DNA of 64,000 nucleotides from assembly GCA_002917075.1 (NCBI GenBank), contig NTMA01000036.1, positions 248,001 to 312,000 on the forward strand, written 5' to 3'. This document shows positions 23,395 to 49,443 of the stretch, in pieces. Positions within the stretch are counted from its first letter, which is position 1; each line of letters begins with the position of its first letter. Source of the stretch: Hawksworthiomyces lignivorus. Taxonomy: Eukaryota; Ascomycota; Sordariomycetes; Ophiostomatales; Ophiostomataceae. A program made the translations under genes and the position numbers. Below the pieces are notes generated by a model, which worked only from the letters and a program-made list of their open reading frames with translations, had not been told where the DNA came from and did not search any database.

Positions 23395-23839
23395 GTCGTT
23401 AATGGCTTTTTTTCTCCTTTGGTAATGTTTACAAATGTTTTCGAACTGAGAAGAACCTGGGTTGCAACAGTTGCAAATTATGTAGGGGCGTCCCAGTCTC
23501 ATCGGTTTCTTTATCATTGGTTGATGCTGGAACCCCTCCTTTCGTTCATCGGTTTACTTGTAATTGGCTGATTTTGGCCATCCAGGAAAGTAAGGCTGCC
23601 ACTCTCTTCTTGGGCGAACACGCTGCTTCTCATCTTGGTGGTCTGCTTAGGGAGACTTCTCGTATTAAATAAAGTAATGGCCTTTCGTCATAGAAGAACA
23701 AAAAAGCAATCTCGCTAAATGCGTGGGATATCGATTACCAAAAAAATCATCCATCCAAAAACGGCACTTTGCTTTGTTCGACTCCAAAGGTGCACATTTC
23801 GGCTACCGGCGACAAAATTAGATTTCTGAGCGATAAGCT
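23395..23839. promoter_or_regulatory. divergent promoter, Nudix and Zn2Cys6 genes
   Basis: These 445 bases separate the start codons of the minus-strand Nudix gene and the plus-strand regulator gene. No clear TATA box or operator was picked out. Confidence 0.45.
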
Positions 23840-26257: not shown

Positions 26258-28864
26258 CTATTCGGTCTCCCAAATGCTGTTCTCTATTATTGCTCGAGAA
26301 ATCCAATCAGCATCCTCACCGGTGATTGAATTCGCCATGGCCATAATTTGTTCGGCTGTGAAATCAGTATTATAGCCTCCCTCGTTTCCCAGATTACGGG
26401 GCAGAGCCATAGCGTCCTGACAAACTGACATGCCCGCCCCAGGCAGCATCGTATTCGGAAGAGGGCTTCCGGCATGTGCTTGAAGCGAGCTGTCGCCCCG
26501 AGGAAAACGGTTAAAGTTGGGAGTCTGCGCTGTGGGAAGATCGCTCAGGATCTCGCTCAGCTTCTGCGCTTCAGCCTTTCGAAAATCGGCAATCCGGTTT
26601 CCCAGAGACGCCATTTCCTCTAACATAGCATACGACTTCTGCTTCCAGGAGGCGTGCCCGTCCAGCAACTGCGGGTCGACGGCCTGGCCGACAAAGAGAA
26701 CTGTGGTAGACACGAATAGTGCATCGAGGTCAAACGGGAGAAATGTTTCTACGAGAAGAAGAATTTAACAAATGTCGTTGTATCAGGGTCAGCGAGGAAT
26801 TATCTTGCGTACCCAAGAGGTCCTGGGATGATATATTGTCCAGGATATTGAGAATTTGTAGAGACGATTCGATGCACATGAGCAGCAGATTGCGAACTGT
26901 GCTAGATGCAGCGAGCGAGTCAATCTCTGACGGCGACTCGAAACGGATCTTGAGGCAGCAGAACAACAATGGTCTCGTCGCGAGAACTATGCTCTGCGGG
27001 GACAAAATTAGTACGTAGACAAAGAAGACGAGGGCAAGGTGCGAGCGAACCTGGTGGTAGAGGAGATGCAGGTGAGCCGCCGTCCTCGATACGCCACCGA
27101 GCGGCTCGTCCGCGTGCAGACGGAACGACTGCTGGAGCTCGTCGGCCAGGCCCGCTATACTCTCCAGCACGGCCTTTGTACTGATCAAGAACCGCTTTCT
27201 CAAGCGCCCGCTTGTCCCATAGACAGCTGTAAACATGCAAAGACAAGTTAGCAACAAATAAACGACGACTGTTAGCCGCACGCTGTCAACGTACTGCTGC
27301 TGATCTCGGCGACGACTCGTGCCAGTTTGATCTGCATGCCCAGCGAGGCCGTTCTTTGCGTCGAACCCGAAAAGCTCGGTAGCAGGCAGTAGACGTCGTC
27401 GTCCCGCACCGACTGGGGAAGCCCCATTAGCGACGTCATCTGTCGGTCTAGTATGTATACGGTCCACCAGATCTTGCGACATCTCTGTACGAGATGCTCT
27501 CCCAGGTGCACGACGGGCATGTCTGTATGCATGCCGTAGCCCATCGCCATACGCATGGCCTGGCCAATCTATGCCCCATGTATATCAGCACAAGCTGGAT
27601 CTTTGCTGAAGCGCGGTTTGCTTCGACCTACATAGATGTGTGCCGAATTACGAAAGTCCAGCGACTGGAGATACATGGCCACACAGCACAAAATTTCTGT
27701 TGACTCGATCGGATCCTCGCAGAGAACGGTCACGTCGGGCAAAAGTCGGAGGGCTCTGGCAAAGAAGTCCGCACCTGGTGGCTTTTTCCCCTGATTTTTT
27801 TGCAAGACAAAAGACTTCCCGAATGCCAGCACCAGGAGGAAGTGGATGTACCACAGGCGTGCGCGATCAGCCGCATCGGAATAAAACCTGTGCAGACTTT
27901 CCATGAAGTCTTCCTCGTTGAACAGGTGAAACATCTGCCCGCAGTGAAACTTGACGGCGTTGATCAGATAGATGGCGTGGTCAATCCTTGGAATCGCCAG
28001 GGAGCCCAGGCCCTCTGTGCTTTGGGAACCATCACACCCTAGCTCGTACGCGGAACCATCGAAGAGGAGAGCCGCGGTGGGAAGAGGCGATTGGTAGAGG
28101 TGCTCGTGTGCCATTCCGAGGACCCGCCTCGAGAAGGACCAGTTCGATGAGGTGCCAAGGTAAACTGCCCGATTGAGGTCAGAGTTCGCTCCTTTCCCCT
28201 TTAGCCATATGCGATACAAACTGGCTCACATGATCTCCCGTTAGACGCCGACATAAATGTCGACGGTGTCGCGGTTAATGGGTTCGTCAAGTCCGATGCC
28301 GTGGATTCTATCGGTGCCCTGATGAAGGGGGACTGTTGGGTCGCCGGCTTTTCGGCTGCAGGTGCATCGTGGTGCGCTGCGTCTTGGTCAGGGCTAGCTG
28401 TTTAAGATTAGCTCGTTCCGAACTCATCTTCGTGGGCCTGCTTCACTGCATACCGACTTCGACCGCTGTGTCCGTGTCATGGTTGCGGCTCCGTTCTGTC
28501 GGACTGTAAGCTCGTGCCTGCGCTTCTTCTAGTCGTAATATCTTCTGTTGCAAGTCGAGGATATATCTAATCTCGTTGTATTAGCGTCGTTCGGCACCAG
28601 CGTGTACGATGTTGTTTGATATTACCCTTGCGTTACTAATATTTTATTATCGCCTCCATCGAAGATGCAAGTCAGTTTGCGCTTGCTACATCCAGCGCAT
28701 GGCTGTAACCCGGAGCATTTAATCTTTTGCCTTCGGCACCGGGAGCAGCTATTGGGGAAGATGAGTGGTCAGTCAAAGCATTCACCGAGATGCAAGATTT
28801 GACAGGTTGCATACGCATTTGCCGACCGCTTTGTAACTCTCCCTGATGTGTTCGTGGGCTCCAT
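26258..28864 (-). CDS. Zn2Cys6 activator, candidate regulator of the proline cluster
   Basis: Nine exons (28815-28864, 28626-28748, 28454-28566, 28230-28397, 27632-28164, 27295-27568, 27051-27226, 26813-26993, 26258-26748) encode 702 residues. An N-terminal zinc cluster runs from CSRCRRQKIKC (C18, C21, C28) to CAGCSKRKLTC (C34, C37, C44). A short coiled coil (YILDLQQKILRLEEAQ) follows for dimerisation. The fungal-specific transcription factor domain is in the middle, with SLDFRNSAHIYIGQAMRMA and RKIWWTVYILDRQMTSLMG. Family knowledge: such proteins bind paired CGG or CCGG elements and activate catabolic genes on induction. It borders a set of proline-pathway genes and is the only DNA-binding gene there, so it is the natural PrnA-like candidate. 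That role is inferred from position, not from sequence. The first intron donor at 28814 was chosen because it restores the usual residues before the cluster. Confidence 0.84.
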
Positions 28865-30473
28865 CGAGGCGGCAAGACTGTTGAAGCACAAGATACTGTG
28901 CCGGTAAGATTTATCAAGAGTGTCCTTACATATGTGAGGGGGTGGGCGACACTCTGTTATGGCGCGCTATAATAAGCCTACTAAGATAAGTTAGTTTCGA
29001 GTAGCTGACTTTATGGGCCAACCCAGTAAAAAGTGACTCGATCTGGCAGACAACAAAAAGTTGCAGATAACGGTGGAGAATCTGGTGCGAGATAACCCCC
29101 GACAGTGTGGCAACTCCACCCACAGTAAATACTCCGCTTTCATGCAGGGAGATAAGTCCCCTTCAATAACTCTTAGAGCAGTTTTGCCTTTCTCGAACAA
29201 CTAGAGGTTAAGTTTCGCATTACTTTACCTTATGTAGTCATTAGTGGTAGAGGTCTTGTTGAGTGCTGCCAATATGCCACTGTACAAGTACAAAAAGGAT
29301 CCATCCCCTTGGACACATGTCATAGTACTTTATAACTCAAAAGGTCTGCTCTGATCATGGTGCCAGATCCCCACATCTTGGCAACATGAAAGCAAGCTGC
29401 AGGGTTGGGGATCTTCTTACACATGCAGTTCTGTCAGAACGTGGCAATAACCGAAAGACGCCAACCTGCCACACACTCCATCTCTGCAGAATTGTGCTTC
29501 GTACATGTGCGGGAGTCCCAGCACTAATGTGGAATATCTCTCAACCAGAGCTTCAAAGTAGATCACGATTCACTCTGACCAAGACAGAGACTACATACCC
29601 CATAGAGTAATAGACAAGCCATCAGGGGAGTAAAAGTTACAAAAAATTATGTTCGTTCTGCCAGTCCACGTTAGTTTAGTGTAGGTCGAATTTGTTAAAC
29701 TTAAATCGTACGCTGGTGGTCTCGCAACTCTCTCACGGCCCGCAAAAATCCTTCTCTGTTTTACCCCAGAATTCTACCCCAGAAAAGCCAAGATATTTGA
29801 TTATGACGGCGTACCTGCTCAGCACGCCCAGGTACATACAAGGGGCAGCTATCGGCTTTAGGCGGATTCTGTATGTAAAACGGAAATGCATCCCGACTCC
29901 AAAAACTCGGCTTTTCCGACCCCTCCCTCAAAATATGGAGCAAGCTAGTCTGGGAATTTTCATTGCCACCTTGAAACTGCGGGCGTTGTGTCGACTTGAA
30001 CTTGCGCATCATTTTGTTCCTCAATTTGCTGATACTTTACTCTGTAAGAGTGTGCTTGAACTATGATCCGGCCAGTTGTCCCCCTGCGTAAACAAACATA
30101 GACCGTAGAAGAAAACCCAGTGTATTTGTTCCGATGCTAAGAGCATGAGAGACAAGTGAAGTATCAGTTCGGCCGTTGAAGATATGTCTCGCTGTATGGA
30201 ATCAGCTTAGATATGGCACGTTAAGGACACAGACATTAAAACAATTCCAGATATACTGCGATTCTTTATGCCTGAGGTGCTATAACCTCAAGTCTCCGTG
30301 AATATCTATATGGGTTAATTGACGAGTTGTTTTGATTGCCAGTTCAGCATGCCAGAATATACCGCAATTTATATGAAATTTTAAAAGTGCATAATCTGAA
30401 GTTTGCTCGCCCAGGTATAGACGACTCTGGCAAACTTGATTAATTAGCAAGAATTATTATCCCCCTTCTTGAA
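28865..30473. other. 1.6 kb intergenic region upstream of the activator gene
   Basis: No supported coding frame on either strand. It holds the promoter of the Zn2Cys6 gene and the 3' flank of the FAD oxidase gene. Confidence 0.45.
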
Positions 30474-31853
30474 TCACAATCTTGACGTCTCGGGACGCGG
30501 AACATCTCTGAGTTCCTTCGTCTCTCCAAGACGCCAGCTAACATCATCGCCCCAGTCAGAGTCCTTTGTTTCCTTCGGGGGAGCCTTCCAGCGCCATCGC
30601 GCGATTTTCTGCCGTCCATCAAACGACCCCAGCAGCTCGGCAACCCACTCGCCCACAATCGGGAACATCTTGAATCCGTGGCCTGAGTCACCTGACAGCA
30701 GGATGACCGAGCTTGACGTCTCTGGTACGTAGTCGATGATAAAATCGGAATCTTGTGTATCTGCAAACCAGCAGAGAGACTTTCTCACGAGCGGACGCTC
30801 GCTCAAAGCTGGCAGTGCATGCTGCAACAGCCGCCGGATCCTCGCTTCGTCCTCGCGGGGCAGAAAGCCGCTCTCGGCCGGGGACGGCGGCAGCGACAGC
30901 CCTGACGATGGATCCGTGTTTGTGTAGCCCCCGCCCATGGGGCACAGCTTGAGCAGGTTCGTCTTTGGATCTGGCTCGAAGAAGAAACCGAGATCGCGCG
31001 CGTACGTGACGGGTATGCCGCGCAGAGCGGACGTCTCGTCGTCGGTGAGCCGGACGTGCGCCACCGACCACGACTTCGCCACCACGTGCGTGCCGGCCTC
31101 AGGGACGAGTCGTGTGGCGGTCGCGCCGGCGGCGACGATCACGAGCGAGCCAGGGTGGAAACGTCCGTCCTTGGTGCACACGCCGGTGCACTTCCTGCCA
31201 TGGGACGTCACGTCGTATACCAGACCCTCCACGGCGTTAGTATCTTCACCTAGGAAGTAGCGTACCCCCCGGGCTTGGGTGGCCCTATAGGTAGCGGCCA
31301 AGGCGTCTGCCGAATGGGCGTAGCCGTCGTAGCTGTTGAAGTAGCCGTTCCATTTCGGCAACGGCCCTTCAAGCTGCCACGCGATCTGGCGGACGTCTTC
31401 CGGTCCCTGGACGAGAGACAGGTGTTTTGCCATCTTACCATTGACCTCCGCTGCCGCCTGAAACCTCTTCAGAGTGGCTACGGCTTTTTCAGGTGCTTCT
31501 CCCGAGACGCAGTGGAGAAAGCCTGTCTGGTGGAAGTGTGGCGCAAAGAGCGGCGTTTTCCAGGCTTCGATGGCCTCCTAGATGATTGTCCGTCGGTTAT
31601 CATCAGTCGCCAACTTCGAATGGTCATCGAAGGAATCACGAACCACTGCCAATTCTGTGTAGAATGGGTCCTCATACTCTGCTCTCACGATCTTATTGAT
31701 GTCATTAGCAGCAGAGTACCGGGATGGGATCTGGACACCTTTTTCGAAGACGGTGATGTCGGTGTATCCGCTTAGGGACAAGTGGAGGGCTGTCGAAACG
31801 CCGAAAGCTCCTCCGCCGACGATGATGACCGTATCGGATTTTGAAATCCCCAT
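30474..31853 (-). CDS. FAD-dependent amine/amino-acid oxidase (sarcosine, pipecolate or fructosyl-amine oxidase type), peroxisomal
   Basis: Two exons (31644-31853, 30474-31577) encode 437 residues. Seen: the dinucleotide-binding start VIIVGGGAFGVSTAL (glycines 13-15 and 18), the covalent-flavin-type segment SLCWFADTQDSDFIIDY with C339, and SGHGFKMFP near the C-terminus. All are typical of the MSOX/FAOX branch of the DAO family. The last three residues, SRL, form a type 1 peroxisomal targeting signal, which fits an H2O2-producing oxidase. Family knowledge: these enzymes oxidise secondary amines such as sarcosine, pipecolate, N-methylproline or glycated amino acids. Next to proline-pathway genes, an N-substituted or D-form proline derivative is a reasonable guess. 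The ATG at 31853 is chosen because it lies just before the FAD motif. The 66-base intron has a CTGAT branch. Confidence 0.85.
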
Positions 31854-32307
31854 GGCCGCTGCCAGCATAAAATAATAAACGCTAAATTGTCTACGGCGAA
31901 AGGCAGCAGAATGAAAGACTCGTAGTCCGTTGTTCCCCAAATTCTGATCCCCAAAAGAAAGGTCAATAACTGTAATGTCTAGATATACACACTGTCAACA
32001 CATTCATAGGAGGTTATCACCAACAAAAATAATCATACGACCGACTTCCGATTTCCGCTGCTGGTTCATCAACGCACAAGCCGGGCCTAGATGCGGCGAG
32101 CACTAGTTTTGACAAAGAACACGGGTTTTCTAGTCGGCGAATAATTGCTAGAAGGAATGATAGGAACACACATGTGCACACCATGCAAACAACCGAATGC
32201 GCTTCATATTCTGGTCCCTATCATCTGGCGTCTTTTGTGGGCTAGTTCTCTGATAGAGTGGTGACTAGAGTCGGCTGTGATCCCGGTGGATGTTCGCTTA
32301 CACAAAA

Positions 32308-32477
32308 GTCGGGTTGGCATCCGAGCCCAAAAGATACCCAGTCTGATACAGCCCGAGACAAGTTATGTGTAAGAATTCGCCCAAATACTAACCTGCTGGC
32401 GTTAATCATATGAAAATATTCAGCTTCCTAATGGAGATAGGCTCTCCGTGGCTTATTCACATGGTTGACCATGCTTT
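32308..32477. repeat. copy A of an imperfect direct repeat
   Basis: This aligns by eye with 32982-33144 over about 165 bases. Shared words include GTCGGGT, CATCCGAGCCC, GATACAGCCC and ATTCA-ATGGTTGAC, with many substitutions and small gaps. It may be a duplicated promoter segment or the remnant of a repeat element. Confidence 0.6.
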
Positions 32478-32981
32478 TTACTCGAGCTTGTTCTAGAAGG
32501 GTAAAAGTAGAAATTTGTATTGAGATTACATGAAGCTGTTCATATAATACTTTTATACCCAATAGTAAGACTGTTTTAACTTTAACGGTAAGCTGATTGT
32601 GGAGAGAGGAGCGTAAGAAGGTGATATAATGTGGAGCAAATAGTAAGAAGCCGGCAAGTCTCCTACAAACATCACGCCTTTTACATTATAACAAATGATC
32701 AAAATATAACGAAGAATAAGTCAGCGCAGGAGTAATGAATACTTCTGGCGTCCCAAAACTCAGCAAGTACTGCGCAGCCATCAATTTCGAAAGACTGCAG
32801 AATCCGACAGCGCTTTAAAACGAGATTTAGGCTCCTCTTTATGAGCTAAATATTCCATCCCCCTAGCTCCATGCCATGTCCTCTCGAGGCTATCTACCTT
32901 CGATGTTCATCATCTTGTAGTTGGGCGGGTATGTGAAATTACACAACTATTGTCTCTCACTAGCCTCGAGTTCCGTAAAAC

Positions 32982-33144
32982 GTCGGGTCACATCCGAGCC
33001 CCAAAATAAGATACCAAGTCCGATACAGCCCCCAAACAAAATATATGCATTAATTCGGTCGTACATTAGCCAGCCGGTATGAATACCGTATTCAACTGTC
33101 TAGTGAGATCGGTCCTCTGCAGTCTATTCATATGGTTGACTATG
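32982..33144. repeat. copy B of an imperfect direct repeat
   Basis: This is the partner of copy A, about 0.67 kb away in the same orientation. It ends near a CCGGCC palindrome at 33166-33182. Confidence 0.6.
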
Positions 33145-33165
33145 AATACCGCCCGAACCAGTCCT

Positions 33166-33182
33166 CCGGCCTGGAAGGCCGG
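33166..33182. promoter_or_regulatory. CCGGCC-N5-GGCCGG palindrome
   Basis: A perfect inverted repeat with 6-base arms lies about 195 bases upstream of the carrier-like gene. Paired CCGG half-sites are the type recognised by the proline activator PrnA of Aspergillus, though the spacing here (N9 between CCGG cores) differs from the sites I know. Candidate operator only. Confidence 0.3.
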
Positions 33183-33375
33183 CAGTAAAATGTGCTTCCT
33201 GACTGTATGAAATGACAACCACGACATAATTTTATCTCGTCTTGACTTTGAAAAAGTCCAAACGTATAGAATATTGCTAAAGACGCTGCCTAGCTGCTAA
33301 TCACCCACTGTAGTCTTCTGCTTGACAAGACGGACGAGACATATTAGGGCCATAGCTTTCACAAAACAATAAAAC

Positions 33376-34321
33376 ATGTTACAAAAACTTTCGGACAAGT
33401 GGCACAGCCATTTACCGGCATTACTAGCAGGAGATCTTTCTGCTGCTGCCATATCGGCAGCATTCGTCGCTCCCGTTGTGACAGTTCTTGACAGGTGTGG
33501 CAACTCTGATTAGAGACTTTGGGTGTGAGATAGATACTTACTAGTGGAGAGCTGTCGTCGAAAATGCATCGACTAACCGGCCCCTTCGCACACTTTTGCT
33601 ATGTTCACTTACACGTCCTCGACGGGTTTTCAACTCCAGAGCGCTAGCTATTATGTGGACGCTCTACGCAGCGACGTATGCAACGGCCAATGTGGCAGAA
33701 AACTTGACTGAAGAATTATTCCACACAGCCGACAAAGCTGTCACTGGTGCTGTATCTTTTGTGTCAGTATTTCTGGTCAATACGCCACTCGGCCTCTGGA
33801 AGGATATCCGGTTTGCGCAGTTTTATGGCGGCACCGCCAACCCGAAGAGAACCCCGGCGGTAGAAGGGCCAGGCATCTCAAGTATTCGGCCAGCTACAGC
33901 CTCTCTTCCGAGAATTAGTCTTCAGACAAACTCTACAGTTCCTCGTGCTGTGTATGGAGCATTTCTCATGCGAGACGCCTTGACTGTTTTCGGATCGTTC
34001 TTTCTGGCTCCATTGATGTCGGCTGCCATTCCAGACTCGATGACAGTCCATGCCAATACCAGGTCTGCCATTACACAGCTCGTCGTGCCCGCGCTAACGC
34101 AAACTGTCGCTACGCCGTTTCATCTGCTTGGTTTGGACATATATGATAGGCCGCATGGCATCCGCCTGTCCGACCGGGTTTCCCAAGCACGGAGGAATCT
34201 TGCGTCAGTGACGGCTATGCGGGCCATACGGCTCATACCAGCATTTGGATTTGGCTGCATCGCCAATGCGAGATTTCGTGAGTTTTTTCATGGGAAGTTT
34301 CAAGAAGCAAAGGCAGGTTAA
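33376..34321 (+). CDS. mitochondrial-carrier-like membrane protein
   Basis: Two exons (33376-33494, 33550-34321) encode 296 residues. The intron of 55 bases ends at GGAG, which restores VLDRAVVENASTNRPL across the junction. Residues 13-38 (LPALLAGDLSAAAISAAFVAPVVTVLD) resemble the first helix and PxD motif of a mitochondrial carrier. Later segments near 85-105, 165-185 and 270-285 are hydrophobic. The three-fold PX[DE]XX[KR] repeat is not clear. Family knowledge: fungi have a poorly studied set of divergent SLC25-like proteins of this length. In this cluster it could move a proline-pathway intermediate across the mitochondrial inner membrane, but that is inference from position. The two half-sequences are certain to join; the transport role is not. 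Confidence 0.62.
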
Positions 34322-34732
34322 CAAGTGCCAAGAAATGTCTGAGTGAATTTGCACACCGGAGGAGCCGAGGAGCAACCTGATAGACTGGTGGTTTTGGCAC
34401 ACACCTAGTGGAGAGAGTAGATCTATGGTTCTTGTTTCGGTCCAGGAATCATAGGGGTATGTCTCCCTTGGCTACATACATCTCCAATAGAATTTAGATT
34501 CCAACTAACCAGCATAACAAATATAACCTAAGTGTTCAAGGCTGGGTTGACCGCACTATGATATTCCTTTTCGGAAACTAAATTTATGTAGTTGTATTGC
34601 AAAAATAGTTCAATTTGCAAAATAAAAAATTGGAAAAGAGAACTTATCAATGCTGATATCCGAGTACATCTATCAGAGAAGCCTTGTCGGCCTCTGAATT
34701 AATTCTGTTCCTTGGCTTATATCCTCTACAAT
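34322..34732. other. convergent 3' intergenic region
   Basis: An AT-rich gap between the carrier-like gene and the P5C dehydrogenase gene. No gene is seen. Confidence 0.55.
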
Positions 34733-36647
34733 CTAGTAATTACTTGGGTACTTAATGGTCGTCTGAGGGAAGAACTCCTCTTTAATCAATCTCGGGCTGG
34801 TGAAGCGAAGGAGAACATTTGAGCTCCCGGCCTTGTCATTGGTTCCGCTGGCGCGACTTCCACCGAAAGACTGCTGCCCTATCAAGGCTGCAGTTGTCTT
34901 GCAGTCTAGAGTCATAGAATGTCAGATCCTGTTTAAGTAGATGCAGAGGGCGAAAACTTACTAATATAGAAATTGCCGGCTGAGTAGCGTAGGACATCTT
35001 CGGCCTCTCGGATAGCGCTGCGGTCTTGGGAAAATACTGCGCCTGTTAGGGCAAATCCGCCTCCACTTTGGTCTACCTTTTCGAGGATAGAGCTCCATTC
35101 GCCATCTTGGTAAACGTAAACCACCAGCACAGGGCCAAAGATCTCTTCATTGAACAGCCTGTGGTCTGGGGACTGAGCTTGGTAGACTGTCGGCTTCACG
35201 TAAAACCCTTCCGAGTCGTCGTAAGTTCCACCGGTCAGCAGCTTCAGCGATGGATCCTTGTTGCTCGCGTCGATGATAGTCTTGATCTTGTCGAATGACC
35301 GACGATGAATCACTGGTCCCATGAAGGCTTCTAAGTTCTTGTCTGGGCTGCCGATCGTGATCTCCTCGATGTTGGCCTTGAATGCCGACAGAAATTCACC
35401 GGCCCGCGACGCAGGGAGATAGACTCTTGATGTAGCAGAGCACTTCTGGCCTTGGTACTCGAATGATCCGCGGATGGTATGGTTGACGGCGCTTGGGATG
35501 TCGGCAGACGGGTGAATCAAGGTGAAATTCTTGCCGCTGGTCTCCCCAACAAGGCGAGGGAAATCCCGGTACGTCCCAGCCCCGATCCCTTTGCCAATTC
35601 TCTCGTACAAGGAGCGGAAAACGGCAGAAGAGCCAACGAAATTCAGACCGGCGAACTCGCGGTGGGAAAGTACGACATCGGTGATGCTCTCGGCATCGCC
35701 AGGCACGAACTGGATAACATTTGGGGGGAGACCAGCCTCCAACAGGATCTTATACACAATTGAGCTAGCGTAGACGTTTGAAGCCGACGGCTTCCAGAGA
35801 ACCACGTTGCCCATCAGAGCCGGACCAGACACTAGGTTGCCGCCGATAGCGGTGAAGTTGAAGGGCGATACAGCGTAGATAAAGCCCTCCAAGGGGCGGT
35901 AGTCCATCCGGCTGTTGGGGCAAGTCAGTTCTCCATTTGCTCCGTGCATGGTCTTGATGTAGCTCACCTCCACATTCCCTCACTGCCACGGTCAGGCTGT
36001 CTCTCCAAGAGCTCTGCGGCGTAGTTGCAGTTCAGTCGGAAAAAGTCAGCAAGTTCCGCTGCAGCATCGATCTCGCCCTGCCAGATGTTCTTGCCCTGGC
36101 CCAGCATCGTCGCCGCGATGAGCTCATAGCGATATTTTGTTGCTACCAGCTCTGCCGCCTTTAGGAAGATGGCCGCCCGGTCGACAAACGGTGTCTGCTC
36201 CCACTGTTTCTTCGCCGCAAGTGCTGACTTAATCGCGGCAGAGACCTGGTCCCTGGACGCAGCCGAGTAGTTGGTGAATACGGTGGTATGTTCGGCGGGC
36301 AACGGCTCCGACAGAGATTCAGAAGTCTCTTGTGCAACACCGTTGTAAAACACATCGGCCTTGAGTGGAAGTTGAGACCGAAGCTTGGTCAGAGCTTCTT
36401 CCAGTTTAAGACGCTCGGGGGAACCTTTCTTATAGTTCAACTGTAGACATTAATATTAGCTGGCTCAAGTGGTAACGATCGGGATCTTTACATTGGGCTC
36501 ATTTCTCGGGGCCGGCAGCGCAAACGGCATGGTGGTGTGGGTGCGTGGCTGAGCAAAACACAGCACTCGGGGCAAATAACGCAAACTTGGCCTGAGGAAT
36601 TGCGATGGCCTGGAGAGGCTCGACGCTAGGACTCTGGACGTGGCCAT
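34733..36647 (-). CDS. delta-1-pyrroline-5-carboxylate dehydrogenase, mitochondrial (ALDH4 type)
   Basis: Four exons (36492-36647, 35968-36440, 34962-35911, 34733-34905) encode 583 residues. An Arg/Ser-rich leader without acidic residues (MATSRVLASSLSRPSQFLR) indicates mitochondrial import. Then come YRPLEGFIYAVSPFNFTAIGGNL, the general-base segment LVGETSGKNF (E333) and the nucleophile in FEYQGQKCSATSR (C367). The C-terminal INCKTTAALIGQQSFGGSRASGTNDKAG, joined across the last intron, is diagnostic of P5C dehydrogenases. Role: NAD-dependent oxidation of P5C (glutamate semialdehyde) to glutamate. The mammalian homologue also oxidises 3-hydroxy-P5C to 4-hydroxyglutamate. It is the prnC/PUT2 equivalent. 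The start is divergent from the aldolase gene across a 553-base promoter holding a CCGGACCGG site. Confidence 0.93.
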
Positions 36648-37200
36648 GGCTTTGGATTTTCAGTAATCAATGTTACGCTAACTGGGAGGAAGTGTCCAAG
36701 TCAGACGTTAAAGGAGAAAAAGAAGAGACGTTTCCAAAGAGCCTCTCACTCCAAAGACACAACGTAAACAGACGTGGGAAAAAGACCTATGAGTGCAGGT
36801 GTGATATTCGCTATACCAACATTATATTTGACCGTCATATTCTCAGCATACTATAGGTTCCGTCATATCCAAGCATTTCTCTTCACTCCAGCGGGTAAAT
36901 GGCCTAAACTCTATGAGATCGGAAGTGCAGCCGAAAGCTACGGTCACAGCCCCGACAGGCACTGACGTGCGCTTTGGCGATATACAGTACCGCCAGGCAA
37001 AGATAAGCCGATGCTACGCGACTGATACGCATTTGCCATGCCGGCACTGTTCCTATCCAGTCCGGACCGGAGCAGAGGCCGAGGACTATGACTACGTGCT
37101 ATCCACATTACCGGATTATGAGTTGCTCAAAAAGCGAAGAGAAACTGGCAATGGAAGAGAAACTTCTTGCGGTAAATGATCGAAAAAAGCCACAGAGACA
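36648..37200. promoter_or_regulatory. divergent promoter, P5C dehydrogenase and aldolase genes
   Basis: Shared 553-base region without a supported gene. It contains CCGGACCGG at 37062-37070 and several other CCGG and GATA-like words. Co-regulation of the two genes is likely from layout. Confidence 0.5.
37062..37070. promoter_or_regulatory. CCGG-A-CCGG candidate activator site
   Basis: CCGGACCGG matches the CCGG-N-CCGG inverted repeat reported for the Aspergillus nidulans proline activator PrnA (from memory of the prn literature). It lies 131 bases before the aldolase start and about 415 bases before the P5C dehydrogenase start. Confidence 0.45.
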
Positions 37201-38181
37201 ATGGCGACCTCACGACTACCACCCAGCGGCGTTTGGTGCCCTGCCGTCACCTTCTTTTACCCCGAAACGGATGAACTGGACCTAAAGGCCCAGGCCCAGT
37301 ACTACGCATACCTGTCCAAGACTGGGCTCGCCGGTCTGGTTATCCTCGGCACAAATGCGGAGGCCTTCCTTCTCACGCGCGAGGAGCGCAAGGCCCTGAT
37401 ATCGACGGCTCGCCAAGCCGTCGGCCCGACCTTTCCCATCATGGCCGGCGCGGGTGCGCATTCTACACGACAAGTCCTCGAACTCGTTGCTGACGCGGCA
37501 GAGGCGGGGGCAAACTCCGTTCTTGTACTCCCGCCGGCCTACTTCGGAAAGGCAACAACACCGGCGGTCGTCGAAAGATTTTATACGGACATCTCAAAAA
37601 AAAGCCCTCTTCCCATCGTCATCTACAACTTTCCGGGGGTGTGCAATGGCGTGGATCTCGATTCGGCAATAATCACTAGGCTGGCGCAAAAGAATGACAA
37701 CATTGTTGGCGTGAAGTTGACCTGTGGTTCCGTTGCCAAGATCACTCGCCTGGTGGCCGCACTCCCTCGGGAGAAATTCGCTACGTTCGGCGGACAGTCT
37801 GATTTCATCATCGGAGGGTTGTCCTCTGGGTCTTCCGGCTGCATTGCTGCGTTTGCAAACGTGTTCCCTAAGACTATTGTTCGTATCTACAACCTCTACC
37901 AAGAGGGCAAAATTAAAGAAGCGCTCGAGCTACACCAGAAAGCTGCCCTGGCCGAGCAACCCATCAAAGGCGGCATCGGGCCGACGAAATACGCTGCCGC
38001 GATTCACAGCGCACGGTACGCAGGAATTGAGGGGGCGGTAGACAAACTAAAGCCTAGGGCGCCTTATGTTGAGCCGAGCAGCGAGGTCAAGGAAATGGTC
38101 AAGTCTAGCATGGCAGAAGTGGCGAGGATCGAAGAGAGCATTCCTCTTAAGACAGAATCTATTATTAGACAGAAGCTATAG
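37201..38181 (+). CDS. DHDPS/NAL-family aldolase, possible 4-hydroxy-2-oxoglutarate aldolase
   Basis: An intronless gene for 326 residues. The protein has the dihydrodipicolinate synthase barrel: an N-terminal GTNAEAFLLTREER (the GTTGE position), the catalytic tyrosine in IVIYNFPG (Y142) and the Schiff-base lysine in VGVKLTCG (K172). The length is normal for the family. Family knowledge: members split or condense 2-oxo acids with pyruvate. Fungi make lysine by the aminoadipate route and do not need dihydrodipicolinate synthase, so a catabolic role is expected. Animal HOGA1, of this family, cleaves 4-hydroxy-2-oxoglutarate from hydroxyproline into pyruvate and glyoxylate. The position beside P5C dehydrogenase and proline dehydrogenase makes that reaction the best guess. 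Alternatives are 2-keto-3-deoxy sugar acid aldolases or a hydroxyproline-pathway deaminase. No clear mitochondrial leader; the C-terminus QKL is at most a weak peroxisomal signal. Confidence 0.85.
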   Translation: MATSRLPPSGVWCPAVTFFYPETDELDLKAQAQYYAYLSKTGLAGLVILGTNAEAFLLTREERKALISTARQAVGPTFPIMAGAGAHSTRQVLELVADAAEAGANSVLVLPPAYFGKATTPAVVERFYTDISKKSPLPIVIYNFPGVCNGVDLDSAIITRLAQKNDNIVGVKLTCGSVAKITRLVAALPREKFATFGGQSDFIIGGLSSGSSGCIAAFANVFPKTIVRIYNLYQEGKIKEALELHQKAALAEQPIKGGIGPTKYAAAIHSARYAGIEGAVDKLKPRAPYVEPSSEVKEMVKSSMAEVARIEESIPLKTESIIRQKL

Positions 38182-38303
38182 ACTACGTCCCCAAAAGGCA
38201 CACGGTGGTACCTCTCAAATAAATAGGCGGTCATTACTTGGAGTCGGATCTTTTGAGGTTCTAAACACGTTCTGCGAAACAAGGGCATCCCATTTACGCG
38301 TGA

Positions 38304-39275
38304 CTAACGTCTGGTGTCATTTACGTGAGGAGTAGTCTCCATTAAACGAGCAATAGTGACGGCTTCCCGAAGTGCCCGGCCGATGTGTCCACGCACGCCA
38401 CGTTCTTCAAGCTCCATCAGCCCACCGATCGTGCATCCCTCTGGAGACGTGCCTTGGTCTCTGAGTATGCCCGGATGGACTCCGCTCTGCAGGAGAGTGG
38501 CGGTGCCCAGCATGCTCTGGAAGATCATGGTATGGGCCAAGTTCCGGGGCACGCCTACTGCAACGGAGGCATCGATCATGGCGTCGCAGATTACGGCAAA
38601 GAACGCCGGTGTCGATCCCGCAACGGCGGTAGCCGCGTCCATAAGGCGGGCAGGAATGCTGACGGTCTTGCCTACCTGCTGAAATATCGTGTGCGCGATC
38701 TCGAGATACGAGGTCGGCATACGCGGATCCGGGTCCTCAATGGACGTGAGCGACTGGGAGACGCTTGCTGCAATGTTTGGAAGTGTTCGCAGAACCCAAA
38801 TCGGACCGTCCTGGTCATGGGCAGAGTCGTTTCCTTGCAGCAGCGTGCTTTCTAGCTTCTGCCTTGGCCAGCCGGCTACCACACTGATCAGCAGCTTGTC
38901 TCCCAATGCGCGGCGAAACCCGGGCTGCGTCAATATTTCCTGAATATCGGCAGGATCAGCTGCAAGGAGGATAACATCGGACTCTTTGACGGCCGCCACG
39001 CTGGAACCACGGGAAATGACCACTATGTCCGCGTATTCGGAGAACCGCTCCCTGAGCCTCTGTTCGGAGTCCTTGCTGTGAACACACGCCCAGAAACGAT
39101 CGAAAGGTACTGCGTTTTCTCCATCCCAGCGAACTTTAACCATGCTGTCGAGGATGGCTCCCCCCAAGTTGCCTGCATCAAACCAATTAGACTGACTACA
39201 AATCCCTTGGCCAATGAAGTGCGTGGACGTACCGCAACCCAAGATGCATAAAGTTTTTTTGCTGGGAGCTGACAT
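38304..39275 (-). CDS. delta-1-pyrroline-5-carboxylate reductase-like protein
   Basis: Two exons (39233-39275, 38304-39172) encode 303 residues. The 60-base intron sits inside the NADPH-binding loop and splicing gives CILGCGNLGGAIL. The C-terminal P5C reductase signature region reads HPGILRDQGTSPEGCTIGGLMELEERGVRG, in two consecutive parts. Family knowledge: the enzyme reduces P5C to proline in the cytosol, the reverse of the catabolic direction. In a cluster with proline dehydrogenase and P5C dehydrogenase it could recycle P5C or act on a relative such as 3-hydroxy-P5C or a pyrroline-2-carboxylate. It is probably a paralogue of the housekeeping enzyme, which cannot be checked here. Its 3' end lies 122 bases from that of the aldolase gene. 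Confidence 0.86.
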   Translation of the reverse strand: MSAPSKKTLCILGCGTSTHFIGQGICSQSNWFDAGNLGGAILDSMVKVRWDGENAVPFDRFWACVHSKDSEQRLRERFSEYADIVVISRGSSVAAVKESDVILLAADPADIQEILTQPGFRRALGDKLLISVVAGWPRQKLESTLLQGNDSAHDQDGPIWVLRTLPNIAASVSQSLTSIEDPDPRMPTSYLEIAHTIFQQVGKTVSIPARLMDAATAVAGSTPAFFAVICDAMIDASVAVGVPRNLAHTMIFQSMLGTATLLQSGVHPGILRDQGTSPEGCTIGGLMELEERGVRGHIGRALREAVTIARLMETTPHVNDTRR

Positions 39276-39869
39276 GATCGGAATAAACTAGCTGATTTAC
39301 TTGCCTCGAACACCAAGAATACTAAGTGGCCGACCCAGGAGATAATGAGGATGATAAAAGCAGCACAATCTCCGAGGAGCTCATATCAGGAGAAGACAGA
39401 AAAGGAGAATATTCCTGTTATGGCAATTCTCGGATTTTCCGAAGAGCGCTACGGAAGCGTGAGGTGTGTTCCCCTCATTGAAACCCAATCTGCTAAGTTT
39501 TGGGGGTTGGTTACCGGATGCAGTCCCGTAGTGGAAGAATAAAACATGAAGCATGAAGAACACCTAATGTAACATTCTCCACGAGAAACCATGTGTTGCT
39601 GTTGTGACAAGTCGTCTTGTCATTCATGTTCCCGTCGCACGGCATTCTTCTACTCTGCGCTTCCAGTATTGAACTATATGACATATCACAATGCTTTTGA
39701 ATTTTGCAAGATATCCGTAGAAAACTCGTAAATGTTTTGCTTTTATAGTTGCTAGTCAAACCCAGCACACTCTATTAAGCCAAAAAGCTGTGCCTTGAAT
39801 TGTTGCCTCGGAGCCATAGGGTAGCAGGGCTTGCAGAAGTTAAATTTCAAGAGGCATACTGTTTGGAAT
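39276..39869. promoter_or_regulatory. promoter region of the P5C reductase-like gene
   Basis: 594 bases between the 3' end of the proline dehydrogenase gene and the reductase start, both on the minus strand. No gene is seen; one single CCGG near 39513. Confidence 0.45.
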
Positions 39870-41382
39870 TCAACTGCGCAAGGTCACAGCCAGCTTGAGC
39901 CTCCTCCCTAGCTCGATCTTTAGTGCAGTATACTCATCTTTTGTTCTCAATACAGCATCGCGGTTCTCCACTGCCCGCCGCATGAGATATGCCAAACACT
40001 CACCCATGCTGCCCCAGGTAGAACACTTGAACACCTCTGGCGCCGCCTCTCCCTCCCCTTTCTCCTGGAGGAGTGAGAAGCTGACCTCGTCCGACATGCC
40101 ATGCAGTTGTCCGTAGGCGACTGGAACCGTCGGAAGATTGGCTCTTACTCGCTGCTGATACAGTCGACGAGCAGTCAGAATGCTGTGTCTATTGTGGCTC
40201 GCGAGGAAAAGATTGACTAAGGGGAACGGAAGGCCACCATCCCCCCCGAAATCTCCTATGTGCTTCTGGAGCGCTCCCAGGGCGATGCTGTTGTACGCGT
40301 TGTCGGTATCTTCTTTCGTATCATGAATCAAGGATCTGTTATCAGACAGAATGTACGCTCCCCTCACCAGCTTCAGGCCTAGAGTAAACTCGTCTCGGCC
40401 GGCAGCGGCGAGGTGCTGGCTGAGCAGGGCCGGTGTAGCCTTCAGATAGGCCTGATAGGTGTTGTAGACGACGGCAAATCCGTCGCGGTTGAACTTGCGC
40501 ATGAGCTCCAGGGTCACGCGGGCGATGTCCTTCTGGAAATGCTGCGACTCCGCATCAACTATGATGCGGATCCCCCGATCCTTGCACATGGTGCAGATCT
40601 CGTCCAGGGCGTCGAGCATCTGCTGCGGCGGCAGCTCTCCAGCCGTAAAGGCTGCTGTTGCAGCCGGGCCTGCCCCGGTAAGTCTATAATGCGTAATAAG
40701 CAGGTGCTCGAAAATTCTCAGGATATACTTGGAAAACTCACTTGACGGCGAGATAATCTCCTTCCTCGATCAGATTAACCGTGTCAATCGTCCCCGCCCT
40801 CCAGTCTTCAATATGGCTGCAGTGCTTGGTCTTCGTCTCCGAGACCTCGCCATTACCGCCTGCTGCTGCCGCAGCATCGTGCCCATATGACGCTGAGTTG
40901 GTGCGGTGGTCAAACACAGTTTCCCGCGCATAGGTCATAATAACACCCCGGAACCCCAAGTCCTTTAGCTGACGAATGCATGTCTTGGATTCGGCGGCAG
41001 TCTCGCCGGCACAGAATTGTCTATAGAAGGTCGCCTTCAGCATAGAGTGTAGGATAGGGTTCTTGTCTACGTTGAATAAAAATCCTCGCCCAGGCTTTGA
41101 AAGAAAGGACAGTATAGAGAGAGACGGTAGGAGCAAGAAGCGGTTCGAGGACACACTAGCAATGATCAGGGATCGTAGCAGTGTGCCAGCCGGTAAAGCT
41201 GACAAGGGAGGCAAGGGTCTATGGCGCGCGCCATTTTTCAGCGCAACAGATGATATCAATCTGACGTGTGCACCAGGCCAGCCTCGTGAGACCCTTTGTT
41301 TCGCAGCTGCAGTGCTATATCGCAACAACAAGCCCCCACAGGCTTTATCAGGCATCAAGTAGATCATAATCGGGGACGTCAT
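39870..41382 (-). CDS. proline dehydrogenase (proline oxidase), mitochondrial
   Basis: Two exons (40742-41382, 39870-40683) encode 484 residues. The N-terminus has an Arg-rich stretch typical of mitochondrial import. Seen in the FAD-binding barrel: LAVKLTGAGP (joined across the intron), RIIVDAESQHFQ, VVYNTYQAYLK, LGLKLVRGAYI, FLASHNRHS and VAYGQLHGMSD. Role: flavin-dependent oxidation of L-proline to P5C on the mitochondrial inner membrane, the first step of proline use. It is the prnD/PUT1 equivalent. Relatives (PRODH2) oxidise hydroxyproline, and sequence alone does not separate the two here. It is divergent from the permease gene over 614 bases, the same layout as prnD-prnB in Aspergillus. 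Confidence 0.93.
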
Positions 41383-41996
41383 GAGTGGCGAGTTTTTTTT
41401 TCTTATTCGGCTGTGTCGACAACCCGGTATGAGCCACTGATTCTGAATTAATCGACATATTCACTCTACATTCTGTCCTCATATACCTCACGACGTTGTC
41501 TTCGGTCTTGTATCGGGTTCATACCCGCTGGAGTTTGCCGTATTGAGCAATCGACAATCATATGAATGCTACCCCACATCCACCACCTGTACAGAAGTCG
41601 GAACCGCCGCCGAGTCCGTGCAGGCCTATCGGTGGCTTAGATATGTCAGTTCAACTATTTTGTTTGTTGTGTTTACAGGAGATTACATGGAGAACCAGGC
41701 TGGTTCACCCCATACACACCCATGTCCAACCTCCCCCCCCCTTCCCTCATGGCGTGTCCTTTAGTCCGCTGTGTATTATCAAGTGTGGTATACCAAGGCA
41801 CTCACCGTGTGGTATCATGCTTCCCAAAAGCCCTCATATCCTTCGTAGTCGTCGTGCGGCTTGCAGGAATTGAAAACCCCGAGTTTTCGCCCCTGATCCG
41901 GCCTTTGGATGTTCATTCTATTCCAGGACAACACGTTTTTCTCAGTCACATTTTAATTGAGGACAATGACACAAATTTAACCACAAATTAACCAAA
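41383..41996. promoter_or_regulatory. divergent promoter, proline dehydrogenase and permease genes
   Basis: Shared 614-base region, equivalent by layout to the prnD-prnB bidirectional promoter. It holds the palindrome CGGGTTCATACCCG (41514-41527). No gene is supported. Confidence 0.55.
41514..41527. promoter_or_regulatory. CGG-N8-CCG palindrome
   Basis: CGGGTTCATACCCG is an inverted repeat with 5-base arms and a 4-base centre, also readable as CGG-N8-CCG. Everted or inverted CGG triplets at fixed spacing are the usual Zn2Cys6 dimer targets. It lies 132 bases upstream of the proline dehydrogenase start. Confidence 0.4.
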
Positions 41997-43834
41997 ATGG
42001 ATACAAAGCTACCCACAATGACATATACCAATGAAAAGACGGACGACTCGTCCCAGGCGCCGAACGCTGACCTCTATCGGGGGGACAGCGTCCAAATCGG
42101 CGTCGTCAACACCACCGATCAGCTCCAGCGGAACCTCGGAAACCGCCAGATTCAGCTGATCGCCATCGGCGGCTCCATTGGGACGGCCACCTTTGTCAGC
42201 ATATCTTCTGGTCTGGTAAAAGGCGGTCCTGGAAGCCTGTTCCTTGCCTACACGATCTACTCCTGCGTGCTGGGCCTGGTCAACAACTGTATGGCCGAGA
42301 TGGCCGTCTACATGCCTGTCACAGGGGCATTTATCCGGATGGCTGGCCGGTGGGTCGACGAGTCCTTTGGCTTTCTCGCCGGCTGGAATTTCTTCATCTA
42401 CGAGGCCGTCCTGATCCCCTTTGAGATCTCGGCACTCAATCTTGTCCTGACATTCTGGCGCGATGACATTCCAGTGGCGGCTGTCGTAGCTGCTTGCATC
42501 GTGCTCTATTTGTTCGTGAAACCCTTGTTGTATTGTTTTTTTATTTATTTTTTATTTTTTTATTTTTTTTTTTTTTTCCCCTTTTAGCAACTGCGACTAC
42601 GCGACTAAGATGAGAGATAATATGGAACTAACAGTAAGAGTACAGCGCTATCAATATATTTGCAGTCAAATGGTATGGTGAGGCAGAATTCTTCCTAGCC
42701 ACTGGCAAGGTCGTTCTGATCGCTATCGTTTTCTCCTTCACATTCATTACCATGGCAGGCGGAAATCCAAAGCATGACGCGTACGGCTTCCGATACTGGA
42801 AAGACCCTGGTGCTTTCGCCGAGTATATTACTACGGGAAATCTTGGGCGTTTTGAAGGCTTCCTGGGTGCTCTATGGAGTGCGGCATTTACTGTCGTCGG
42901 CCCGGAATACGTGTCCATGGTAGCCGGCGAGACCAAGCTTCCCCGGCGCTACCTAAAGGACGCCTTCAAGACCACCTATGTACGGTTTGCCATCTTTTTC
43001 GTGGGGAGCGCCCTGACCGTAGGCATCGTGGTGGCATACAACGACCACACGCTGCTGTCTATTCTCAGCGGCTCGTCCAAAGGCGCGGGCACGGCGTCGG
43101 CATCCCCGTATGTCATTGCGATGCACAATCTGGGCATCTCGGTGCTCCCGCACATCACCAACGCTCTGCTGGTGACCAGCATCTTTTCGGCTGGAAACGC
43201 ATACACCTACTGCGGGAGCCGTAGCCTGTACGGGCTGGCGCTCGAGGGGCAGGCGCCCAAGTTTCTCCGCAAATGCACAAAGGCCGGCGTCCCCGTCTAT
43301 TGCCTAGGCGTCACCATGCTATTCCCTTGCCTAGCCTTCCTCAATGTGTCTAGCAGCACGGCAAAAGTGCTGACCTGGTTTACCAACGTCATCACTGCCG
43401 CCCAAATCATCGATTACATCGTCATTTGCGTCACCTATCTGTTCTTCTACAAGGCATGCCGCGCCCAAGGCCTGGACAGGCGCACTCTTCCCTACTATGG
43501 ACACTTCCAGCCCTACTCGGCATGGATCAGCCTCGTGTTTCTGACAACCGTGGTCTGCGTCTATGGATACAGCGTGTTCCTTCCGGGTATGTGGGACATC
43601 AGCTCCTTCTTCACCTACTACACGATGGTTCTCGTTGCGCCGGTTCTGTACTTCGGGTGGAAGATCGTGAAGCGGACCAAATTCGTGAAAGATACCGAAG
43701 CGGATCTTATCTGGGAGAAACCCGCAATCGATGCCTATGAGGCTGCCTACGACGAACCAACCGTCGGGTTTTGGATGGAAGTGCTGCAGATGTTTGGCCT
43801 GCGAAGGTGCCTGAAGAGGAGCTCAGAAATTTAA
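41997..43834 (+). CDS. amino-acid permease of the APC superfamily (fungal YAT type)
   Basis: Two exons (41997-42511, 42646-43834) encode 567 residues. The N-terminal cytosolic tail is followed by the first span with GNRQIQLIAIGGSIGTATF, the APC consensus in which substrate backbone atoms bind. About twelve hydrophobic spans can be traced, including GEAEFFLATGKVVLIAIVF, VVGPEYVSMVAGETKLPRR and the IFSAGNAYTYCGSRSLYGLA region. Role: proton-coupled uptake of amino acids at the plasma membrane. The location fits the proline permease prnB, though hydroxyproline or a broader range is possible. The 134-base intron carries a long T tract (about 42535-42586) and a CTAAC branch site. The tract makes this intron prone to sequencing and assembly error. 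Confidence 0.9.
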
Positions 43835-49153: not shown

Positions 49154-49443
49154 TGCAATTCGGGTGGCTTACATATCCTTGAGACAGGTTTTTATCACTT
49201 GTCTATGCATATCGGGACGGCGTACGGGACGGGCTCTTTTTGTCGTGAACTGAAATCTAGACCAAAAATATGAATGCATGTCATTACTCTATTTTGCATT
49301 TGTCTCCATTATGAACAGTTTTTGCTTTTGCCCTTTTGTTTATTCTCTCGTCATTCATCCGTAAAATATGGGGGTATATATATCCTATGAAAAGCAAAAG
49401 AACCCTGTTTTTCCACTCCGTCCTAAATGCTCCATTTTTTCTA
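49154..49443. terminator. convergent 3' flanks of the coiled-coil and APC5 genes
   Basis: 290 bases of AT-rich DNA between two tail-to-tail GC-rich genes, probably holding both polyadenylation regions. Confidence 0.45.

What the first reader, a model, noticed from the sequence alone, without database searches (positions are those of the whole stretch)
26258..43834. Extended proline-utilisation gene cluster
Eight neighbouring genes fit one pathway: Zn2Cys6 activator, FAD amine oxidase, carrier-like protein, P5C dehydrogenase, pyruvate-type aldolase, P5C reductase-like protein, proline dehydrogenase and amino-acid permease. The core resembles the Aspergillus prn cluster, including the divergent dehydrogenase-permease pair. 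The amine oxidase, aldolase, reductase and carrier-like genes are additions that I do not know from prn.
Basis: partly seen in the sequence, partly recalled or inferred. Interest (0 to 1): 0.75.

Follow-up and report, generated by a model that had tools for sequence, protein, structure and literature searches.

The report
Fungal hydroxyproline-degradation gene cluster
Eight neighbouring fungal genes look like a dedicated, self-regulated kit for eating 4-hydroxyproline, the modified amino acid of collagen and plant cell walls, rather than an enlarged version of the known proline cluster.

Summary
All eight genes exist at 26258-43834 and splice into open frames; only "carrier-like" has no family support. 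The cluster is real: cluster-type proline dehydrogenase (ProDH) and FAD oxidase share a contig in 32 of 37 species seen in both hit lists, 8 of 120 listed ProDH relatives are annotated as a ProDH-P5CR merger, and nine CGG-N8-CCG sites lie in four of its five upstream regions. But these are not the genome's only proline genes: a second ProDH (45% identical), two more P5C dehydrogenases and another P5C reductase lie elsewhere. At the residue that in E. coli PutA (Tyr540) enforces proline over hydroxyproline, the cluster enzyme has Cys and its 120 listed relatives have Cys (118) or Ser (2), whereas the second ProDH and four bacterial relatives have Tyr. With a pyruvate-type aldolase carrying most active-site residues of 4-hydroxy-2-oxoglutarate aldolase, the best reading is a 4-hydroxyproline pathway ending in pyruvate + glyoxylate (confidence 0.67). 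A sarcosine-oxidase-like, probably peroxisomal enzyme is an unexplained extra. The top listings of my literature searches show no such fungal cluster. There are no expression or enzyme data; every substrate is inferred.

The parts
26258..28864 (-). Zn2Cys6 transcription factor, 9 exons, 702 aa
   Evidence: spliced model open; Zn_clus and Fungal_trans over cut-off
30474..31868 (-). FAD oxidase of the sarcosine-oxidase/amadoriase family, exons 31647-31868 and 30474-31577, C-terminus SRL (peroxisomal signal by inference)
   Evidence: model; PF01266; nearest solved chains amadoriases; Arg52/Tyr55/Lys348 clamp
33376..34321 (+). carrier-like gene, identity not established, exons 33376-33494 and 33550-34321
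   Evidence: model; no Pfam/NCBIfam hit
34733..36647 (-). P5C dehydrogenase paralogue, putative mitochondrial presequence (by eye), 4 exons, 583 aa
   Evidence: model; PF00171; TIGR01236 best NCBIfam hit on one exon, below the full-length cut-off; paralogues
37201..38181 (+). DHDPS-family aldolase, proposed 4-hydroxy-2-oxoglutarate aldolase, intronless
   Evidence: PF00701; HOGA1 residue mapping
38304..39275 (-). P5C reductase paralogue, exons 39233-39275 and 38304-39172
   Evidence: model; TIGR00112; 72% and 57% to the P5CR part of relatives' merged proteins
39870..41382 (-). proline-dehydrogenase-family enzyme with Cys434 in place of PutA Tyr540, proposed hydroxyproline dehydrogenase, exons 40742-41382 and 39870-40683
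   Evidence: model; PF01619; residue
41997..43834 (+). amino-acid permease, exons 41997-42511 and 42646-43834, divergent from the dehydrogenase
   Evidence: model; PF00324; best NCBIfam TIGR00913 on one exon, below cut-off
32272..32323 (.). two CGG-N8-CCG sites (32272, 32310) in the oxidase/carrier upstream region
33075..33088 (.). CGG-N8-CCG site, CGGTATGAATACCG, a near-perfect palindrome
36920..37081 (.). three CGG-N8-CCG sites (36920, 36941, 37068) between P5CDH and aldolase
39515..39528 (.). CGG-N8-CCG site upstream of the P5C reductase
41514..41612 (.). two CGG-N8-CCG sites (41514, 41599) between dehydrogenase and permease

Best explanation
A dedicated trans-4-hydroxy-L-proline (Hyp) catabolic cluster. 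Proposed route: the permease takes up Hyp; the ProDH paralogue, whose active site was opened by replacing the proline-enforcing Tyr with Cys, oxidises Hyp to 3-hydroxy-P5C in mitochondria; the P5CDH paralogue makes 4-hydroxyglutamate; an aspartate aminotransferase encoded outside the cluster makes 4-hydroxy-2-oxoglutarate; the DHDPS-family aldolase splits it to pyruvate + glyoxylate. The P5C reductase would return excess (hydroxy-)P5C to the amino acid. The FAD oxidase would oxidise a cyclic or N-methylated imino acid (a Hyp isomer or N-methyl derivative) in peroxisomes. The Zn2Cys6 factor would act through CGG-N8-CCG. Shown: genes, paralogy, linkage of four genes, residues, site excess. Inferred: every substrate, localisation and regulatory step.
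For: Further copies of ProDH, P5CDH and P5CR lie elsewhere in the genome, so the cluster copies are surplus to one ordinary proline set. At the PutA-Tyr540 column the cluster has Cys, the C125 ProDH and four bacterial ProDHs have Tyr (three MAFFT modes with these bridging sequences; phmmer); the motif is Cys in 118 and Ser in 2 of 120 listed relatives. PutA Tyr540 enforces proline over hydroxyproline (Ostrander 2009 as cited in PMC3718742, passages). The other compared ligand residues (Lys329, Asp370, Tyr437, Leu513, Tyr552, Arg555, Arg556) are unchanged in the cluster enzyme. Human HYPDH is likewise a ~40% ProDH paralogue (PMC13155685, passages). Aldolase keeps HOGA1 Lys196, Tyr168, Tyr140 and the HOG-binding Asn78, with Thr for Ser198 (residue roles PMC3188589, passages). 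P5CDH, not alpha-ketoglutarate-semialdehyde dehydrogenase, is the best family of the ALDH (449 v 140 bits, one exon). Linkage: ProDH-oxidase 32 of 37, ProDH-aldolase 5 of 7, aldolase-oxidase 9 of 12 same-species pairs. In one of 120 listed oxidase relatives (Talaromyces verruculosus P0294) an AspAT-like sequence is joined to the oxidase. A. fumigatus grows, slowly, on Hyp as nitrogen source (PMC2526178, passages).
Against: No aminotransferase among the eight genes. HOGA1 scores only 106 bits with the aldolase, below some bacterial DHDPS chains (120); its Asn78/Thr198 pair also occurs in four of five genome paralogues compared, and Ser77 is Thr, as in DHDPS. In two earlier alignments without bridging sequences the Tyr540 column was read otherwise: MAFFT gave Phe in the cluster and Tyr in five of nine relatives, hhalign put Trp there. 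Only one Tyr-type fungal ProDH was compared; A. nidulans PrnD could not be obtained. Cys is not the Ser (recalled) of human HYPDH. ProDH-aldolase linkage rests on few species, and no Aspergillus or Penicillium is named in the listed aldolase hits. 20 of the 32 shared ProDH-oxidase contigs exceed 1 Mb, where sharing is weak evidence of closeness. No expression or assay data.
Confidence: 0.67

Rival explanations
1. A second, inducible proline-utilisation cluster: duplicated prn-type genes for proline as carbon/nitrogen source, the reductase making a proline-P5C redox cycle.
For: Divergent ProDH-permease pair and Zn2Cys6 factor in the ProDH direction as in prn; the core enzymes are in proline families; ProDH keeps the other proline-binding residues.
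Against: Tyr540 position replaced in the window and in all 120 listed relatives; proline catabolism needs no pyruvate-type aldolase; other ProDH and P5CDH copies present.
Confidence: 0.16
2. A cluster for another proline relative (N-methylproline, hydroxyproline betaine, pipecolate or a D-isomer), with the FAD oxidase as the committed first step.
For: Oxidase keeps the sarcosine-oxidase carboxylate clamp Arg52/Tyr55/Lys348 (120 of 120 listed relatives) and lacks amadoriase II Glu280 (Met in 120 of 120); Sox enzymes use L-Pro and D-Pro as minor substrates (PMC12582975, abstract and passages); it is a consistently linked partner (32 of 37).
Against: Does not by itself explain the aldolase; Sox activity on L-proline is about 1/1900 of that on sarcosine.
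Confidence: 0.12
3. Bacterial-type D-hydroxyproline route: oxidase makes pyrroline-4-hydroxy-2-carboxylate, the DHDPS-family protein deaminates it, an ALDH oxidises alpha-ketoglutarate semialdehyde.
For: The cluster has an oxidase, a DHDPS-family protein and an ALDH; pathway recalled.
Against: ALDH belongs to P5CDH (449 v 140 bits); a full ProDH would be redundant; no epimerase family among the matches of the eight genes.
Confidence: 0.04

Closest known systems
Aspergillus nidulans prn cluster (prnA-prnX-prnD-prnB-prnC)
   Same: Zn2Cys6 activator, divergent ProDH-permease pair, P5CDH in one cluster
   Different: P5CDH runs opposite to the permease; adds oxidase, aldolase, P5C reductase and an unidentified gene; ProDH has Cys at the proline-enforcing position (PrnD itself not compared); other ProDH/P5CDH copies lie elsewhere in this genome
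Mammalian hydroxyproline pathway (PRODH2/HYPDH, ALDH4A1, GOT2, HOGA1)
   Same: ProDH paralogue plus P5CDH plus DHDPS-family HOG aldolase; end products pyruvate and glyoxylate predicted
   Different: Mammalian genes are not clustered (recalled); mammals share one P5CDH between Pro and Hyp (PMC8779045 passage), here a cluster copy; Cys rather than Ser (Ser recalled); extra FAD oxidase and P5C reductase
Bacterial trans-4-hydroxyproline clusters (lhp/hyp)
   Same: DHDPS-family protein, flavin oxidoreductase and ALDH in one cluster (recalled)
   Different: Different chemistry (epimerase, D-Hyp oxidation, alpha-ketoglutarate semialdehyde; recalled); the ALDH here is P5CDH-type
Monomeric sarcosine oxidase / amadoriase family
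   Same: Covalent-flavin Cys and Arg52/Tyr55/Lys348 carboxylate clamp
   Different: Met instead of amadoriase II Glu280; substrate unknown

Membership tests
prn-type proline cluster | ProDH and permease divergent around a shared promoter | tested here: met
   41382 (-) and 41997 (+)
prn-type proline cluster | P5CDH transcribed in the same direction as the permease | tested here: not met
   P5CDH (-), permease (+); prnC direction from PMC5983819
prn-type proline cluster | Holds the genome's only proline dehydrogenase | tested here: not met
   second ProDH at C125
prn-type proline cluster | PrnA sites CCGG-N-CCGG or CCGG-6/7N-CCGG in the ProDH-permease promoter | tested here: not met
   none there; one CCGG-N-CCGG in the P5CDH-aldolase promoter
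prn-type proline cluster | Induction by proline | not testable with these tools
   no expression data
hydroxyproline dehydrogenase | ProDH family with the PutA Tyr540 position replaced by a small residue | tested here: met
   Cys434; 118 Cys + 2 Ser of 120 listed relatives; two alignments without bridging sequences read the column otherwise
hydroxyproline dehydrogenase | Prefers trans-4-hydroxy-L-proline | not testable with these tools
   needs enzyme assay
4-hydroxy-2-oxoglutarate aldolase | Schiff-base Lys196, Tyr168 and HOG-contacting Asn78 and Ser198 | tested here: inconclusive
   Lys, Tyr, Asn kept; Ser198 is Thr and Ser77 is Thr; four of five genome paralogues compared share Asn and Thr198
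P5C dehydrogenase | Best match to the glutamate-semialdehyde dehydrogenase model | tested here: met
   TIGR01236 449 bits on one exon (below the 613.6 cut-off for full length)
P5C reductase | TIGR00112 proC above cut-off | tested here: met
   199.9 v 196.75 bits, unspliced frame
fructosyl amino acid oxidase (amadoriase) | Fructosyl-recognising Glu280 | tested here: not met
   Met in the window and in 120 of 120 listed relatives; role of the Glu from PMC5459902, passages
sarcosine/imino-acid oxidase | Arg52, Tyr55, Lys348 carboxylate clamp | tested here: met
   Arg and Tyr 120 of 120, Lys 120 of 120, and in the window
mitochondrial carrier | Mito_carr repeats | tested here: not met
   no Pfam hit at E 0.1

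The most novel reading that the evidence does not exclude
A widespread, previously undescribed hydroxyproline-degradation regulon of Pezizomycotina whose dehydrogenase gained hydroxyproline specificity at the same active-site position as the animal enzyme but by Tyr to Cys rather than Tyr to Ser, and which includes a peroxisomal imino-acid oxidase with no counterpart in the animal pathway.
Probability: 0.5. Interest if true: 0.68.

Novelty: new variant of a known kind. Interest (0 to 1): 0.58.

Why it matters
Hyp is abundant in collagen and in plant extensins (recalled), yet the top listings of my searches of the held library show no paper giving a fungal gene set for its breakdown. If right, it names eight testable genes, explains how moulds could reclaim carbon and nitrogen from collagen and plant walls, offers an independent case of hydroxyproline specificity evolving at one active-site position, and predicts glyoxylate, hence possibly oxalate, from Hyp in fungi.

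Tried and rejected
Structure prediction of the carrier-like exon 2 alone: pLDDT 37; not used for a fold search. The Tyr540 column: MAFFT with PutA as the only outsider put Phe in the cluster and hhalign put Trp there, each with a small gap; after four bacterial ProDHs were added three MAFFT modes agreed on the gapless register with Cys in the cluster and Tyr in C125, PutA and the four bacteria; this raised my confidence from 0.65 to 0.67. The MAFFT columns for MSOX Tyr254, Lys265 and His269 look misregistered and are not used. The motif counts for K368 and R411 are superseded. HOGA Asn173 is misaligned and not used. A real ProDH-P5CR fusion was considered: P0003 lacks the Tyr552/Arg555/Arg556 block, and P0060 keeps it but loses what follows and the start of the reductase, so at least these two look like annotation of two adjacent genes. 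The dyad excess is smaller against all DNA including coding (2.56 per 4 kb, P 0.0013 before allowing for 63 dyads) than against non-ORF DNA (1.14) or dinucleotide shuffles (0.31; 0 of 1000 shuffles reach it); the factor's own upstream region has none; of the two upstream regions of non-cluster copies looked at, that of the C125 ProDH has one site and that of the C150 P5CDH none (cuts approximate). Pairs not sharing a contig: ProDH-oxidase P. capsulatum (lengths 5668694/5668734, perhaps the same contig), P. angulare, P. olsonii, C. incanum, C. chlorophyti; ProDH-aldolase Diaporthe amygdali, Hypoxylon CI-4A; aldolase-oxidase Pleurostoma, Hypoxylon CI-4A, Thelonectria. Only the best 120 of 643, 1645 and 759 hits were listed and used; unnamed hits were left out of the species counts. 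A Verticillium 'sarcosine oxidase' study (PMC12387551, passages) was looked at; whether its gene is the cluster oxidase was not tested.
Full report
What is there. The window is C122:248001-312000 of a 43.7 Mb, 191-contig fungal assembly. The carrier-like gene has no match. The only apparent defect I saw, a TAG inside the oxidase frame, lies within a 69-base intron. The nearest relative seen is Zopfia rhizophila (aldolase 87%, oxidase 77%, ProDH 76% over 78% of the query).

It is not the genome's only proline set. Searches of the same genome found a second ProDH on C125 (45% identical to the cluster copy), P5CDHs on C150 (58%) and C115 (49%), a P5CR on C124 (40%) and a weak partial match on C142, and many DHDPS-family paralogues, the nearest 62% and 66%. 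The long open frames around the C150 and C125 genes show no other obvious proline-pathway gene by eye; they were not family-scanned and that listing was cut.

The linkage is conserved. Eight of the 120 listed ProDH relatives carry ProDH and P5CR domains in one annotated protein; in all eight the ProDH part comes first, the order and strand of the two genes in the window. The P5CR part is 72% (Zopfia) and 57% (Kalmusia) identical to the window's P5CR, against 40% for the C124 paralogue. Matching contig lengths between hit lists and species names: ProDH and oxidase share a contig in 32 of 37 species (8 of these contigs under 250 kb, 20 over 1 Mb), ProDH and aldolase in 5 of 7 named species plus one 30,260-base unnamed contig, aldolase and oxidase in 9 of 12. 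Where consecutive gene numbers are printed, ProDH and oxidase are 1 to 9 apart in six species (Plenodomus lindquistii, Paraconiothyrium, Kalmusia, Penicillium paradoxum, Aspergillus hancockii, Penicillium hispanicum); in Penicillium angulare they are far apart. P5CDH, permease, factor and carrier-like gene were not searched in relatives.

Why hydroxyproline. phmmer against the PDB aligns the cluster ProDH to E. coli PutA without a gap in the last block, placing Cys434 opposite Tyr540; the best-scoring chain, 3e2q, itself has Ser there. Two later alignments disagreed: MAFFT with PutA as sole outsider (Phe in the cluster) and hhalign (Trp). Adding four Bacteroidota-type ProDHs found in genome contigs as bridges, three MAFFT modes give the same answer: Tyr in PutA, in the four bacteria and in the C125 enzyme, Cys in the cluster and in nine of ten relatives, Ser in the tenth. 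A motif count gives Cys 118 and Ser 2 of 120 listed relatives; a stricter register gives Cys 117 and Ser 2, with P0003 unreadable because its merged model lacks the block. The other compared proline ligands are kept. PMC3718742 (passages) reports that PutA Tyr540 determines preference for proline over hydroxyproline; the original was not held. A review states that human HYPDH is a ~40% identical ProDH paralogue that oxidises trans-4-hydroxy-L-proline (PMC13155685, passages).

The aldolase. Its closest solved chain is 3qfe, a 'putative dihydrodipicolinate synthase family protein' (474 bits; Coccidioides by recall); human HOGA1 scores 106 bits, below some DHDPS chains at up to 120 bits. It keeps HOGA1 Lys196, Tyr168, Tyr140 and Asn78, and has Thr where HOGA1 has Ser198 and the DHDPS compared has Ala; in HOGA1 the S198T variant kept kcat with a 7-fold higher KM, and S77T lowered activity (PMC3188589, passages). 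Since four of five paralogues compared share Asn78 and Thr198, this permits but does not prove the function. A transaminase is missing from the cluster; in Talaromyces verruculosus an aspartate-aminotransferase-like sequence is joined to the oxidase (P0294). Its match of highest identity in this genome (C111, 54% and 48% in two pieces; C143, 44%, has a slightly better single-piece E-value) lies beside a DHDPS-family gene in divergent orientation.

The FAD oxidase. It is nearest amadoriase II among solved chains but has Met for its Glu280, and has Arg and Tyr at the Arg52/Tyr55 positions, where amadoriase II has Ser for Arg52, plus Lys348. The 50% paralogue on C33 has both the Arg and the Glu, so the two features are separable. 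The three clamp residues hold the substrate carboxylate in sarcosine oxidase, including bound L-Pro and D-Pro (PMC12582975, abstract and passages). The C-terminus is SRL; 117 of 120 listed relatives end in the loose form x-[KRH]-[LMI], 76 in the strict form [SAC][KRH][LM], which suggests peroxisomes (rule recalled). Its substrate is the main open question.

Regulation. CGG-N8-CCG occurs nine times in 4.0 kb of upstream DNA: oxidase/carrier 3, P5CDH/aldolase 3, P5CR 1, ProDH/permease 2, factor 0. Expectation is 0.31 by dinucleotide shuffle (0 of 1000 shuffles reach the observed excess for any of 63 dyads), 1.14 from 38.6 kb of other non-ORF DNA, 2.56 from 100 kb including coding.

Verdict. The cluster is real and conserved; hydroxyproline is the likeliest substrate at 0.67. 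The strongest weakness is that only one Tyr-type fungal ProDH was compared and A. nidulans PrnD was out of reach. The literature searches listed no fungal hydroxyproline cluster among the 15 to 25 top papers of 98 to 5,105 matching ones, and subscription papers are mostly not held.

Noticed in passing
window 23837-25109 (+): Two exon-like frames with a Zn2Cys6-like motif (CIRCRMQKIK, then C...CQSC) next to the cluster's factor; the single exons have no Pfam hit.
   Followed up: partly
window 32318-32473 and 32991-33144: Imperfect duplication about 671-677 bases apart in the oxidase/carrier upstream region; a CGG-N8-CCG site lies at the start of the first copy, and the second has the same site one base shorter by eye.
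   Followed up: partly
G000 C111:384634-387360 (L032, L033): Divergent pair of a DHDPS-family gene and an aspartate-aminotransferase-like gene, a possible second 4-hydroxy-2-oxoglutarate module.
   Followed up: partly
G000 C115:16242-17645 (L011, L012): Third P5CDH-like gene, 49% identical to the cluster copy, beside a frame with a Zn2Cys6-like start.
   Followed up: no
window 48001-52000: Stretch of 62-68% GC with long overlapping open frames on both strands.
   Followed up: no
window 55211-57016 (-): Long single frame (601 aa) that looks like a GMC-type oxidoreductase by eye.
   Followed up: no
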